The notes beneath the pieces were generated by a model. It did not search any database and was not told where the DNA came from. It saw nothing but the letters and a program-made list of their open reading frames with translations. A DNA stretch of 7,233 nt, taken from positions 1 to 7,233 of the forward strand of contig JAJYSI010000163.1 of the NCBI GenBank assembly GCA_021793635.1, written 5' to 3'. Shown here piece by piece: positions 1,974-7,118 of this stretch. Made by a program: the position numbers and the translations under genes. This DNA comes from Bacteroidota bacterium (GTDB lineage Bacteria; Bacteroidota; Ignavibacteria; Ignavibacteriales; Ignavibacteriaceae). How positions within the stretch are numbered: the stretch's first letter is position 1; each line of letters begins with the position of its first letter.

Positions 1974-2297
1974 TTAAAAAATTAAAATAGAATTTTGTGT
2001 GTCCTTTGAGAAAGTTTCAATGTTAGAAAAATTATTTCTAAGAAGAATTTCAATAGATTCAGTAGTGCAGTTGCCCTTTCGAATCCAAATAACTTTAGGT
2101 TCAATCTCTCTGATCTTATCATTAAAATCAGAATCTTTTGTTACTATTATATAATTATTTTGTTTTGCAAATTCCAATATTTCTTGATCTGTCGCTTTAT
2201 CTAAGGAGAATTCTTTAACATGTTTAATTACCGGAAAAAGATCGCCTAACTCAAAGCATAATTGATGAGAAAGATTTTGATCCAACAGTAATTTCAT
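1974..2297 (-). CDS. DUF5615 PIN-like toxin of a type II toxin-antitoxin pair
   Basis: This 107-residue protein belongs to the DUF5615 family, a compact PIN/Mut7-C-like nuclease fold expected to cut RNA with Mg2+ when not held by its antitoxin. The start MKLLLDQNLS is the family's typical N-terminus. Acidic residues sit where PIN-like active sites have them: D6, D37 with E39 (TDQEI), and D55 and D57 (TKDSDF). A conserved-looking WIRKGN follows at 71-76. All these residues are present and there is no frameshift, so it is probably functional. Its ATG overlaps the antitoxin stop as ATGA. No clear Shine-Dalgarno lies at a proper distance, so translation is probably coupled to the antitoxin. RNase activity is inferred from the family and not shown here. 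Confidence 0.85.
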   Translation of the reverse strand: MKLLLDQNLSHQLCFELGDLFPVIKHVKEFSLDKATDQEILEFAKQNNYIIVTKDSDFNDKIREIEPKVIWIRKGNCTTESIEILLRNNFSNIETFSKDTQNSILIF

Positions 2298-2518
2298 GAT
2301 GCTAAAATGATTGATTTCTTCTCTCTATCCGCAGCGTAGCTGAGGCACGCGAGGATATCATTTTTATTAAGTTCATTAAAATCTTTTAGCACATCTTCGA
2401 CGGTCATACCTGAAGCCAAATATTCCAGAATATCATAAACGGTAATTCTTGTATCTCTGATACATGGCTTACCACTTCTTTTGCCGGGATTTATAGTTAT
2501 ATAGTCCTTATAATCCAT
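2294..2518 (-). CDS. DUF433 antitoxin, partner of the DUF5615 toxin
   Basis: This 74-residue protein is of the DUF433 family, a small helix-turn-helix type found next to DUF5615 PIN-like proteins and regarded as their antitoxin. Typical features are GKPCIRDTRITV at 16-27 and an amphipathic region, GMTVEDVLKDF then DILACLSYAADRE, at 37-65. I place the start at the ATG at 2518 rather than the in-frame TTG at 2527. An AAAAAAGG stretch ends 9 bases before the ATG but directly abuts the TTG, and the likely transcription start near 2534 would leave the TTG almost no leader. The gene is first in a two-gene operon and overlaps the toxin by 4 bases. The product probably neutralises the toxin and represses the shared promoter, as is common for type II modules. 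Confidence 0.85.
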   Translation of the reverse strand: MDYKDYITINPGKRSGKPCIRDTRITVYDILEYLASGMTVEDVLKDFNELNKNDILACLSYAADREKKSIILAS

Positions 2519-2535
2519 TTTGTTCAACCTTTTTT

Positions 2536-4624: not shown

Positions 4625-5737
4625 TTATTTCGAAAATATTTTAATAATAAACGGAACCGCAATTAAGGCAATTAATATAATAAAGCTGATAGGATGTCCA
4701 AAGTTAAACGTCCACCCAATGCCCATTCTTTTGGGAACCATAAATGCCGGATCGTCGGGATTATAATAAAACATTCCAAGCTTCCAATAAAAATTATCGT
4801 CAGCTATCTTATAGTTGTTTGCTGTTTCACCTGTATCAAATTTTAACCTGCTGCCGGACTGCCCTGTTTTTATTGCTAGCACAATTGCACCGATAAGAAC
4901 AGCATTCGGAACAACGATATTTATGATCGTAAATAATTCGCCAGATAAATTAATCAGCTGGTCTATTTTGAGAGAGATTATTACAAAGAATGCGGATAAA
5001 ATAAAAGCTAATATGACAATATAACCAGACCAAAGATACCTGAATTTCCTATCCTGAAGTTTTGATTTTTCAGGGTAATTGGATGAAGTCTGCTGCTTAG
5101 CTCTTTTGATAACGAAATAAATTCCTACAAACAACAATAAATTTATTATTGAACTAACCGGCATTAGAAATACGTAAAAGCATGTTTTGGATGTAAATAG
5201 AATTGCCTTCCCGTCAAAATTAAATTTAATAGGAATTGTTGCGGGTATTTTATCATAATTCAATGTAATAAATAAAAAACAAAATATAATTATGATTAGC
5301 GATGGAATAAACCAGGCAAAAGGAATAAGATATTTTCCTTCTCTGAAGCTGGTATCTACAACTATTATTTGCTCCTTCTTCCCAACATCTTTTTTAACAA
5401 TAGAATTGTTAATTATTGCCATCTTGTGATTGTATAAAACATAAAGATATCCTATAAAGAACACCGAGAGTATAATACCCAGGGAGAGTATTGATTTATT
5501 TTCATATTCATATAAAGATAAAGCAAGTACGATTGAATACGGAATCATCGTTGCCAAATAGTTATGCCTAAAATTTCTTTTTAGTTGTTCCACCATTGGG
5601 TTATTTATTTCTTTATAAGGAATTCTAATACCGAAGATGATCGTTTCTTTATTTAAGAAAGGTATTATAAATCCTAGAACAACAGTTGAAATAAGTATAG
5701 GAAAATACAGCAATAATAAAGCATAATTATGTTCCAT
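4625..5737 (-). CDS. Multi-pass membrane protein with DUF1648 and DUF5808 domains
   Basis: This 370-residue protein has about eight membrane spans (near 7-28, 62-78, 84-104, 138-158, 186-210, 236-256, 270-290 and 349-367). A DUF1648 region starts around 148, with LNYDKIPATIPIKFNFDGKA at 159-178 as its hallmark extracytoplasmic loop. A DUF5808-like stretch follows at 316-346 (FYYNPDDPAFMVPKRMGIGW, then TFNFGHP). DUF1648 also occurs in SdpI, the Bacillus immunity protein and toxin sensor, but that does not establish the same role here. Its ATG shares one base with the regulator's stop (TAATG), and an AAAGG inside the regulator's last codons serves as ribosome-binding site, so the two are co-translated. 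The function is unknown; a role in envelope stress or immunity, under control of the adjacent regulator, is inference. Confidence 0.85.
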   Translation of the reverse strand: MEHNYALLLLYFPILISTVVLGFIIPFLNKETIIFGIRIPYKEINNPMVEQLKRNFRHNYLATMIPYSIVLALSLYEYENKSILSLGIILSVFFIGYLYVLYNHKMAIINNSIVKKDVGKKEQIIVVDTSFREGKYLIPFAWFIPSLIIIIFCFLFITLNYDKIPATIPIKFNFDGKAILFTSKTCFYVFLMPVSSIINLLLFVGIYFVIKRAKQQTSSNYPEKSKLQDRKFRYLWSGYIVILAFILSAFFVIISLKIDQLINLSGELFTIINIVVPNAVLIGAIVLAIKTGQSGSRLKFDTGETANNYKIADDNFYWKLGMFYYNPDDPAFMVPKRMGIGWTFNFGHPISFIILIALIAVPFIIKIFSK

Positions 5738-6123
5738 TATTTTTTACCTTTGTTAATTATTTGAAAAATTTCCTTGCATTTATCTAAAAACTCATTTTCG
5801 CTTATCCCTTTGCAATAGGCTTCCGCAATCATTGGTTTTATAAGCAGTGGAATTTCTTTAAGAAAAGATTTGTTACGCATTTGGGAAAGACTATTAACTA
5901 TTACGCCACTTCTTTTATGAATAATTAGAAATCCTTCTCTTTTCAATATTGAATATGTTTTACCGACGGTGTGCAAATTTATTCCTATGTCCTCAGCCAT
6001 CTGGCGCACGGAAGGAAGCGGCTCTCCTTCCTTTAATATTCCGAAAGCTATCCCTTCAATGATTTGATTTTTAAGCTGTTCGTATATTGGCGTTTCTGAT
6101 GCGAAATCAATTTTTAGAATCAT
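5737..6123 (-). CDS. GntR-family transcriptional regulator, YtrA-like (short)
   Basis: This 128-residue DNA-binding protein has an N-terminal winged helix of the GntR family: TPIYEQLKNQIIEGIAFGIL at 11-30, the recognition region PLPSVRQMAEDIGINLHTVG at 35-54, then KTYSILKREGFL and a wing near 70-77. Only about 50 residues follow, which is too short for the FadR or UTRA effector domains and typical of the YtrA subfamily. Such regulators normally sit at the head of, and repress, an operon for a membrane system; here the partner is the overlapping DUF1648 gene rather than an ABC transporter. The start at 6123 is the first ATG after the promoter. It has no Shine-Dalgarno, but the N-terminus MILKIDFASETPIYEQ matches the family. 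Upstream lies a strong palindrome overlapping its own promoter, consistent with autoregulation. Confidence 0.92.
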   Translation of the reverse strand: MILKIDFASETPIYEQLKNQIIEGIAFGILKEGEPLPSVRQMAEDIGINLHTVGKTYSILKREGFLIIHKRSGVIVNSLSQMRNKSFLKEIPLLIKPMIAEAYCKGISENEFLDKCKEIFQIINKGKK

Positions 6124-6234: not shown

Positions 6235-6843
6235 TTAAATTGATGCGGGTTCCATTTGCATTTTATCGGAGTACGGTTGGCATTTTGAGATGTTGGCGTC
6301 AGGGTCGTCGATGAGGTAGTTTATTGCTTCATTAATTTTTAGAATCACTGGTATGCGGTGATGAATTGGTTTTATGAAATCGTTTGGAGATGCAGTGATT
6401 AAAGATGAAAATATGTTTTTATCTTTGTCTATATGGTAAAAGGGCGGGAACAAAAAGATTTCTTCATCCCGGAGAAATATTCTGTATGGGATTTTCTTTG
6501 TGCCTTCTTTTTTCCATTCGTAAAAGGCGGACATGGGGGCTAGCAACCGGTTCTTTTCAAATAAGCTAAGCCAGAATTTCTTTTCTTTTATTGTTTCAAT
6601 CCGGCTATTGAATATAAGCGGCGATCCGGCGCTGAATTTAATTCCCCAGTTTGTTTGCGATAGTTTATAACTTCTGTCATTATAGGTAATTGAAAGTATT
6701 TTATTGGTTGGGGCAATGTTAGTGAACTTTGTGGGTTTAAGTACAGGTTCAAGATTAAGTTCAGGTTCAAGGTCGATGTTTTGCCTTATTAAGGGTCTAA
6801 CTAAAGACTGAATTGATGGTTTTGTTTCGAAGCGTCCGCACAT
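6235..6843 (-). CDS. SRAP-domain protein (YedK/HMCES-like abasic-site shield)
   Basis: SRAP proteins crosslink covalently to abasic sites in single-stranded DNA through an N-terminal cysteine, protecting the lesion during replication. The 202-residue product begins MCGRF, so Cys2 becomes the reactive terminus after Met removal, which fixes the start. Other active-site residues are present: N79 in FNSRIET (with R81, E83), E109 in SAFYEW, and H161 in the HHRIPVIL motif. TNIAPTNK (41-48) and WGIKF (66-70) are also family marks. Two oddities stand out. Residues 25-36 (LEPELNLEPVLK) come from a hexanucleotide repeat and form a low-complexity linker. FPPFYHI at 132-138 replaces the usual AGLW-like strand. 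No Shine-Dalgarno is visible. It is the last gene before a non-coding right end; the regulator downstream on the same strand has its own promoter. Confidence 0.93.
   Translation of the reverse strand: MCGRFETKPSIQSLVRPLIRQNIDLEPELNLEPVLKPTKFTNIAPTNKILSITYNDRSYKLSQTNWGIKFSAGSPLIFNSRIETIKEKKFWLSLFEKNRLLAPMSAFYEWKKEGTKKIPYRIFLRDEEIFLFPPFYHIDKDKNIFSSLITASPNDFIKPIHHRIPVILKINEAINYLIDDPDANISKCQPYSDKMQMEPASI
6735..6776. repeat. Hexanucleotide-period repeat inside the SRAP gene
   Basis: On the plus strand this reads as seven degenerate 6-base units: GTTTAA, GTACAG, GTTCAA, GATTAA, GTTCAG, GTTCAA, GGTCGA. CAGGTTCAAG occurs exactly twice, 18 bases apart. It encodes the Leu-x dipeptide run at residues 25-36 of the SRAP protein. 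The unit resembles the tract just upstream of the gene. Confidence 0.7.
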
Positions 6844-6851
6844 GGTAATAA

Positions 6852-6881
6852 GTTTAAGTTTAAGATTAAGTTAAAGTTATA
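6852..6881. repeat. Hexanucleotide-period repeat just upstream of the SRAP start
   Basis: The five units are GTTTAA, GTTTAA, GATTAA, GTTAAA and GTTATA, starting 9 bases before the SRAP ATG. On the gene's strand this is a CTTAAN-type leader in the same codon phase as the gene, ended by an in-frame TAA, so it does not lengthen the protein. It occupies the place where a ribosome-binding site would be expected. Confidence 0.6.
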
Positions 6882-6998: not shown

Positions 6999-7027
6999 TT
7001 GACAAAACAAATTATAAAATTTAGATT
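6999..7027 (+). promoter_or_regulatory. Sigma70-like promoter of the candidate small RNA
   Basis: A perfect TTGACA (6999-7004) is followed, 17 bases later, by TAGATT (7022-7027), a 4-of-6 match to TATAAT. The predicted transcript start near 7033-7035 coincides with the first base-paired position of the RNA. An alternative -10, TAAAAT at 7015-7020, lacks as good a -35. Confidence 0.55.
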
Positions 7028-7031
7028 AGAA

Positions 7032-7115
7032 TTAACTCTTTCGAAGGGTTCTCCCCTGCCCTTTGAAGCAATCAGAGTTAAGCCCGGTGTCACCCCCATC
7101 GCCGGGCTTTTTTAT
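7032..7115 (+). ncRNA. Candidate small RNA with two C-rich hairpin loops
   Basis: No ORF is present, but the segment is densely structured and GC-richer than its surroundings. An outer 8-bp stem, TTAACTCT (7032-7039) with AGAGTTAA (7074-7081), encloses a 9-bp hairpin, TTCGAAGGG (7040-7048) with CCCTTTGAA (7059-7067), which has one G-U pair and the loop TTCTCCCCTG. The terminator hairpin follows with loop TCACCCCCAT. Both loops are 10 nt and C-rich, as in small RNAs that pair with Shine-Dalgarno sequences. A promoter sits directly upstream. It does not match tRNA, SRP RNA, 6S RNA or any riboswitch class I know. A leader or attenuator for a gene to the right of the window is the main alternative; at least 115 bases without a gene follow. 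Confidence 0.6.
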
Positions 7116-7118
7116 TTT
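7080..7118 (+). terminator. Strong intrinsic terminator ending the candidate small RNA
   Basis: AAGCCCGGTG (7080-7089) pairs with CGCCGGGCTT (7100-7109), with one G-U pair and a 10-base loop. The run TTTTTTATTTT (7108-7118) overlaps and follows it. On the opposite strand no T-run follows the hairpin, so it works only for plus-strand transcription. No plus-strand protein gene lies upstream in this part of the window. Confidence 0.88.

What the first reader, a model, noticed from the sequence alone, without database searches (positions are those of the whole stretch)
6999..7118. Independent small RNA with paired C-rich loops
Promoter (TTGACA-N17-TAGATT), immediate structured RNA and strong terminator form a complete transcription unit with no ORF. 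Two stable hairpins each present a 10-nt loop with a C-run (TTCTCCCCTG and TCACCCCCAT). Duplicated C-rich loops are a known design in regulatory RNAs that bind G-rich ribosome-binding sites (for example RsaE/RoxS-type UCCCC motifs). I recognise no described family. The outer stem's last two bases (7080-7081) also belong to the terminator stem, so the two stems meet or compete slightly.
Basis: partly seen in the sequence, partly recalled or inferred. Interest (0 to 1): 0.72.

Follow-up and report, generated by a model that had tools for sequence, protein, structure and literature searches.

The report
Conserved small RNA with C-rich loops
This is a real RNA family, not listed in the reference library, of about 80 nucleotides and often in several copies per genome, in a little-studied group of bacteria (Ignavibacteria); its stems change freely while a C-rich loop stays nearly fixed, as expected of a regulator that pairs with G-rich ribosome-binding sites.

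Summary
Window 6999-7114 is a σ70-type promoter, two hairpins and a terminator (z -6.7). It belongs to a structured RNA family of Ignavibacteria that passes no Rfam threshold. Over 77 copies, 21 of 22 pairs show two-sided changes and 96.4% of cells pair (0 of 500 shuffles). The inner stem is replaced between clades; loop UUCUCCCCUG is exact in 91 of 145 copies. One genome holds eight strong copies. Matches better than E 4.7e-5 fell only in the class sample of the nearest genome.

That site is probably ancestral; the window's copy is a dispersed, free-standing one.

Best mechanism (inferred): a trans-acting, Hfq-independent sRNA masking Shine-Dalgarno regions (Hfq 0 of 9 genomes, RRM 9 of 9). 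The loop binds RBS regions about as well as the anti-SD does, but many permuted loops nearly match it, and no conserved target was found. It works like αr14, sX13 or RsaE but fails the membership tests run (αr14, anti-hemB, RsaE).

The parts
6999..7004 (+). -35 hexamer TTGACA
   Evidence: kept at this spacing in many copies (118 of 146 copies score at least 9 of 12 against the family's TTGACA/TATATT, 4.9% of mononucleotide-shuffled upstream stretches do)
7022..7027 (+). -10 hexamer TAGATT (family consensus TATATT)
7034..7113 (+). the small RNA (R2 model match, 93.4 bits, E 2.2e-21; this sequence is one of the 77 the model was built from)
7034..7038 (+). outer stem of hairpin 1, 5' arm (pairs with 7075-7079)
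   Evidence: helix 1: 5 of 5 pairs with two-sided changes, 92.1% of cells paired
7041..7048 (+). inner stem of hairpin 1, 5' arm (pairs with 7059-7066)
   Evidence: helix 2 (counted with the U7049-G7058 wobble): 9 of 9 pairs with two-sided changes, 99.2% of cells paired
7049..7058 (+). conserved C-rich loop 1, UUCUCCCCUG
   Evidence: exact in 91 of 145 copies, CUCCCCUG kept in 119 of 145; C7054-C7056 invariant in the 77-copy alignment
7059..7066 (+). inner stem of hairpin 1, 3' arm
7075..7079 (+). outer stem of hairpin 1, 3' arm
7082..7107 (+). terminator hairpin
   Evidence: helix 3: 7 of 8 pairs with two-sided changes, 95.8% of cells paired
7090..7099 (+). C-rich loop 2, UCACCCCCAU (more variable among paralogues)
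7108..7113 (+). U-tract of the intrinsic terminator
   Evidence: sequence

Best explanation
The region is a gene for an ~80-nt trans-acting regulatory RNA, one member of a multicopy RNA family of Ignavibacteria. RNA polymerase starts about 6 nt after TAGATT, makes a 5'-structured RNA that exposes two C-rich loops, and stops at the second hairpin. SHOWN by comparison: the unit, its structure, its conserved loop and its multiplication. INFERRED: the start point, and that the loops pair with G-rich Shine-Dalgarno regions (the common GGAGAA type or better matches) of several mRNAs and block ribosome entry, without Hfq and possibly with an RRM-type protein. The ancestral copy probably lies 5' of a DUF3098-like gene; the window's copy is a dispersed duplicate.
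For: Covariation. Family size: 33 of 40 relatives, 93 of 294 in the class sample, 23 of 35 genomes behind loci with record titles. Promoter at fixed distance. Stems are replaced while loop 1 stays, the signature of a recognition loop. The loop binds RBS regions (mean -3.39) about as well as the anti-SD tail does (-3.52), and stretches further upstream weakly (-1.39 and -1.19). The complement GGAGAA is in 24 of 594 RBS stretches and 2 of 594 control stretches. Three of the fetched AGGGGAG-ATG sites look like true RBSs by their reading frames (L268, L272, L274). Hfq 0 of 9 genomes, RRM_1 9 of 9.
Against: No transcript data. C-rich composition explains most of the RBS preference: of 60 permuted loops 5 do as well by mean energy and 17 by the count of strong pairings, and the loop read backwards is nearly as good. 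AGGGGAG-N-ATG sites equal the reversed-pattern control, 128 and 128 in 8 genomes, and the homologous pairs among the sites fetched lie inside longer coding frames. GGGGAG is not enriched at RBSs (2 of 594 and 2 of 594). Over whole genomes the loop's 10-nt complement is commoner than its reversed control even without the RNA genes (154 and 79; 68 and 26 of these in one genome, recounted), but in 844 kb of related loci it is no commoner than its permutations, so this decides nothing. In related genomes with weak matches hairpin 1 keeps no C-run while the terminator loop does.
Confidence: 0.55

Rival explanations
1. Leader origin: the RNA is first of all the 5' leader of the DUF3098 gene. A promoter is followed by a partly leaky terminator that sets or senses DUF3098 expression; dispersed copies such as the window's are duplicates with little or independent function.
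For: 84 of 145 copies are followed on the same strand, within the 700 nt searched, by a DUF3098-like frame, among them 63 of the 72 genomes with one copy in my set. The link holds although the upstream gene differs between clades (82-aa gene or an ABC-ATPase-like gene). Where the start codon could be placed (75 copies) it lies 3-83 nt after the RNA, median 26, leaving little room for another promoter. Longest U-runs are slightly shorter there (5.33 and 5.93, p 5e-4, uncorrected for kinship).
Against: By number of T in 8 bases the same comparison gives p 0.058, and paired by genome lower 10, equal 9, higher 2 of 21. Free-standing copies keep structure, loop and often promoter. I saw no alternative antiterminator pairing (by eye only, no call). 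In 30 DUF3098 loci of the phylum sample the model finds nothing beside the gene (best 14.5 bits, E 0.2), and 9 of the 30 best-scoring DUF3098 loci of the class sample and all 40 others fetched lack a C-loop terminator.
Confidence: 0.2
2. Protein decoy: the C-rich loops bind and titrate an RNA-binding protein (for example a single-RRM protein), in the way CsrB-type RNAs titrate CsrA (recalled); multicopy status raises the dose.
For: Near-invariant loop on replaceable stems; RRM_1 proteins in 9 of 9 genomes; multicopy.
Against: Nothing ties any of these proteins to C-rich RNA here; only one or two loops per RNA.
Confidence: 0.15
3. Selfish or passive repeat: a promoter-terminator cassette that spreads without a regulatory role.
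For: Multicopy; one copy looks chimeric (L111: hairpin 1 of one paralogue type, terminator of the other); a tandem pair 205 nt apart in L153.
Against: Compensatory changes at nearly every pair. Some dispersed sites recur between genomes: beside the SRAP gene in L081 and L099, and after the same 379-aa gene in L112, L113, L115 and L116. No phage, plasmid or viral home in the searches made. Mobile genes beside copies were not searched for systematically.
Confidence: 0.05
4. Chance terminator or small coding gene.
For: An overlapping 49-aa ORF exists.
Confidence: 0.01

Closest known systems
αr14 / NfeR1 ('cuckoo RNA') family, Rfam RF02344
   Same: Hfq-independent sRNA (NfeR1, 123 nt); loops carry an ultraconserved C-rich anti-SD motif while stems differ highly in sequence (passages of PMC10746234).
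   Different: Three hairpins with CCUCCUCCC there; here two hairpins with UUCUCCCCUG and a variable C-run. Best score 35.0 bits, gathering 58.8. Alphaproteobacteria there.
anti-hemB, Rfam RF02837
   Same: Best Rfam match of the window, over the whole model (28.3 bits, E 0.0017).
   Different: Gathering score 49.5 reached in none of the 17 sources searched; Burkholderia family.
RsaE / RoxS, Rfam RF01820
   Same: Duplicated UCCCC seed; pairs with SD sequences (passages of PMC9217828).
   Different: 22.7 bits, gathering 79.
sX13 of Xanthomonas
   Same: Stable stems with apical 4C/5C loops, G-rich motifs near start codons of repressed mRNAs, Hfq-independent action (abstract and passages of PMC3771888).
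   Different: Three hairpins; no sequence comparison made here.
FopS sRNAs of Bacteroides thetaiotaomicron
   Same: Multicopy sRNA family in the same phylum that associates with an RNA-binding protein, RbpB (abstract and passages of PMC11697453; that RbpB is of RRM type is recalled).
   Different: 14 members of ~65-70 nt with an R1' seed and σABfr promoters; here TTGACA/TATATT promoters and a C-rich loop motif. No sequence comparison made.

Membership tests
αr14 / cuckoo RNA (RF02344) | Rfam gathering score 58.8 | tested here: not met
   27.7 bits for the window; at most 35.0 over 16 relatives' loci
αr14 / cuckoo RNA (RF02344) | CCUCCUCCC in the loops | tested here: not met
   loop 1 is UUCUCCCCUG in 91 of 145 copies and none of the listed variants is CCUCCUCCC
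αr14 / cuckoo RNA (RF02344) | three hairpins | tested here: not met
   two hairpins
anti-hemB (RF02837) | Rfam gathering score 49.5 | tested here: not met
   28.3 bits; at most 32.5
RsaE/RoxS (RF01820) | Rfam gathering score 79 | tested here: not met
   22.7 bits
C-rich-loop anti-SD sRNAs (functional kind) | conserved unpaired C-rich motif on structured stems | tested here: met
C-rich-loop anti-SD sRNAs (functional kind) | pairs with and represses G-rich ribosome-binding sites | tested here: inconclusive
   generic RBS pairing, 5 of 60 (mean) and 17 of 60 (count) permutations as good; three single candidate RBSs, no conserved target
C-rich-loop anti-SD sRNAs (functional kind) | is transcribed as a separate RNA | not testable with these tools
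   no expression data; promoter and terminator conserved
Riboswitch or leader of a gene to the right | downstream gene in the same transcription unit | tested here: not met
   window copy: no + strand ORF of 40 aa or more begins after it in the window; in the orthologous locus L081 the next ORF of 60 aa or more starts 367 nt on. Met for the DUF3098-adjacent copies

The most novel reading that the evidence does not exclude
A dual-purpose RNA: a leader of a conserved membrane-protein gene (DUF3098-like) whose attenuated transcript is itself a trans-acting C-loop regulator, and which has repeatedly spawned autonomous sRNA genes at new sites. The window's gene would be one such escaped copy, within what would be the first sRNA network described in Ignavibacteria (as far as the paper search shows).
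Probability: 0.25. Interest if true: 0.78.

Novelty: new member of a known kind. Interest (0 to 1): 0.6.

Why it matters
It adds a well-supported RNA family, with promoter, structure, loop and a covariance model, to a deep branch of Bacteroidota. The held library has no paper with 'ignavibacter', 'small RNA' and 'sRNA' together, and no Rfam family passes its threshold. The design matches anti-Shine-Dalgarno C-loop RNAs of unrelated phyla, so it is a good case for convergence. The DUF3098 link suggests how leader RNAs might become independent sRNA genes, a question that expression data from one strain could address.

Tried and rejected
Target search. Perfect loop complement CAGGGGAGNA in 15 genomes: 188 hits and 79 for the reversed control. 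By place 34 of the 188 are the RNA genes themselves, leaving 154 and 79, with 68 and 26 of these in G262 alone. Of 30 fetched stretches 6 are RNA genes and 4 of the other 24 have a possible start codon within 45 nt; these look internal to genes (judged by eye). In 844 kb of related loci AGGGGAG and CAGGGGAG are no commoner than their permutations (19 of 21 and 110 of 168 as common or commoner), so I build nothing on the excess. AGGGGAGNN{2,9}ATG in 8 genomes: 128 hits and 128 in the control. Of 50 loci fetched, 14 gave a downstream frame of 50 aa or more; the only strong homologous pairs (L257/L258, L259/L261) start inside longer open frames, so they reflect coding conservation. L268, L272 and L274 look like true RBSs but with unrelated genes; candidates only. 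Antiterminator or riboswitch reading for the window copy: no downstream gene. Stronger loop pairing of the DUF3098 RBS (mean -5.21 in 75 and -3.39 in 594) reads as a better-than-average SD, so I did not build on it. Plasmid, phage and viral homes: plasmids none; phages best hits 17-25% of the query at E 0.03 or worse; of 80 viral stretches held with the loop 14-mer (the scan stopped at 120) one match only, 20.4 bits, E 0.043.

Rows dropped: L093, L094, L104, L105, L107, L121 (short pieces, mostly promoter-like) and the more distant L106 were left out of the alignments; L096, L109 and L113 (identical or near-identical to others) were left out of A3; so were L158 (no loop 1) and L169 (near-twin of L168). 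L289 lacked a scorable U-tract; L193-L195 and L334-L353 were not in the 146. Identical contexts were merged (151 to 146), which hid G001's own DUF3098 copy (L109). One search placed L412 wrongly; one search mends this (21 instead of 20 positives).

Full report
WHAT IS THERE. Loop 1 is closed by a U-G wobble, so it counts as 8 or 10 nt. The window copy is free-standing: the SRAP gene to the left points away, no + strand ORF of 40 aa or more begins after it inside the window, and in the orthologous locus of the nearest genome the next ORF begins 367 nt downstream.

WHOSE DNA. The prolyl-tRNA synthetase of the window is 96-97% identical to those of two MAGs labelled only 'Bacteroidetes'; genomes labelled Ignavibacteriales and Ignavibacterium follow further down (81% and below). 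No whole genome is held for the window, so all genome counts below are for relatives.

A MULTICOPY FAMILY. A plain DNA search of 14 related genomes gave matches at E below 1e-4 in 12 of 14, several per genome in most. The other two, G011 and G013, gave matches of 59.5 and 61.3 bits with the covariance models. Model R1 (35 copies) matched 93 of 294 genomes of the class sample at E <= 0.01, with strict filters. Model R2 (77 copies) matched 33 of 40 relatives; G001 has eight strong matches and one weak. It matched 23 of 35 genomes behind loci with record titles, at E <= 0.001, with 19 matches among them at E below 1e-7 (I gave 35 of the 80 loci, and 14 others). Among the matched is the complete chromosome IGN3; Stygiobacter electus (L040) had none. 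Over the phylum, 69 of 395 genomes matched at E <= 0.01, but every match at E <= 4.5e-5 lay in a genome of the class sample; the best outside it was E 4.7e-5, a 34-bit match with a shortened hairpin 1 and no DUF3098 gene beside it.

STRUCTURE IS UNDER SELECTION. In 77 copies (74 distinct) of a MAFFT alignment, 96.4% of cells pair, 21 of 22 pairs have two-sided changes, and the covariation score is 0.551 against 0.262 in shuffles, 0 of 500 reaching it; slid structures fall to 0.05-0.15. The shuffles do not correct for kinship; the slid control keeps it, but favours a structure read off these sequences. The narrower set A1 gives the same picture, except that further pair types are reached by 10 of 500 shuffles. 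Inner stems differ wholly between clades, for example UCAAAAGG/CCUUUUGA, ACGACAGU/ACUGUUGU and UCUGUAGG/CCUACGGA, around the same loop. Loop 1 is UUCUCCCCUG in 91 of 145 copies and keeps CUCCCCUG in 119 of 145. Loop 2 is C-rich but variable.

PROMOTER. 118 of 146 copies have at least 9 of 12 matches to TTGACA/TATATT at the right distance, against 4.9% of mononucleotide shuffles; the -10 consensus was chosen after seeing the copies. Copies beside DUF3098 have the best promoters (mean 10.9 of 12, others 8.95).

THE DUF3098 LINK. 84 of 145 scored copies are followed on the same strand by a small membrane-protein gene related to DUF3098 (Pfam E 2.2e-5, 24.4 bits, just under its cut-off of 25; own profile). 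This holds in 84 of 95 genomes of my set (the window counted as one) and in 63 of the 72 with one copy in the set. Qualifications: genomes entered the set because they had an RNA match; copy numbers come partly from strict filters and from my choice of what to fetch; G001's own DUF3098 copy was merged with an identical one; one copy (L092) sits at a contig end. The gene upstream differs between clades. In reverse, 94 of 100 class genomes have a DUF3098 gene. I looked at 70: of the 30 best-scoring, 21 have a C-loop terminator just upstream; of 40 others, chosen mostly among genomes without a model match, none has; the opposite strand gives 0 of 70 (mended; in 15 of the 40 short pieces the gene start could be placed only by coordinate). 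So the RNA marks some clades of the class. In 30 loci from the phylum sample (28 in genomes outside the class sample) the model finds no such RNA beside the gene. In 14 of 27 weak-scoring stretches a DUF3098 gene is again present on the RNA's strand; in several of these the RNA keeps the CCCCCC terminator loop but has lost the C-run of loop 1.

MECHANISM. A recognition loop held by replaceable stems points to pairing or protein binding in trans. RBSs here use GGAG-type SD, with GGAGAA frequent (24 of 594 and 2 of 594 in the control stretch); the 594 come from neighbourhoods of one gene in 57 loci and are not independent. Loop 1 prefers RBS regions about as strongly as the anti-SD tail does, but of 60 permutations of its letters 5 do as well by mean energy and 17 by count. 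This fits the C-loop kind without proving it. No conserved target was found; three single sites look like true RBSs (L268, L272, L274). Whole-genome counts of the loop's complement are ambiguous. Hfq was found in 0 of 9 genomes searched, RRM_1 proteins in 9 of 9 (several of the genomes are draft MAGs and may be incomplete).

KNOWN OR NEW. No Rfam family passes its threshold over the RNA in the window or in 16 relatives' loci; tRNAs near some copies do. The nearest are anti-hemB, αr14 and RsaE. Paper searches used the terms. One search found 0 papers; (DUF3098) found one, an expression table row. For PMC10746234, PMC3771888, PMC9217828, PMC11697453, PMC2864571, PMC5760752 and PMC10434189 I saw passages; the rest only as listings. 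I therefore call it a new RNA family of a known functional kind: it works like αr14, sX13 and RsaE, but it is not a member of the Rfam families tested.

CONFIDENCE. That this is a genuine structured RNA family: about 0.97. That it acts by masking ribosome-binding sites: about 0.55.

Noticed in passing
window 1974-2527, - strand: DUF5615/PIN-like protein (107 aa) overlapping a DUF433 protein (77 aa), the layout of a toxin-antitoxin-like pair (the TA reading is recalled).
   Followed up: no
window 4625-6123, - strand: GntR-family regulator beside a DUF1648/DUF5808 membrane protein.
   Followed up: no
window 6735-6880: Short degenerate repeats of the type GTTCAAG/GTTTAAG around the start of the SRAP gene (seen by eye).
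   Followed up: no
L106 near 1530-1610 (genome G013): A TTGACA-type promoter followed by what looks like a two-hairpin RNA with CCCCCC and CCCUCC runs, clearly different from the family in sequence; perhaps a more distant relative.
   Followed up: no
L111 (genome G001): Copy that looks chimeric: hairpin 1 of one paralogue type and terminator of the other, suggesting recombination or gene conversion among copies.
   Followed up: no
L153, 2350-2430 and 2555-2635: Two copies in tandem 205 nt apart, each behind its own promoter-like sequence.
   Followed up: partly
L158, 2764-2836: A family copy whose first hairpin has lost the C-rich loop; a possible decayed copy.
   Followed up: no
genome G262: 68 exact copies of the loop's 10-nt complement against 26 of the reversed control in one 5.2-Mb genome; unexplained.
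   Followed up: no
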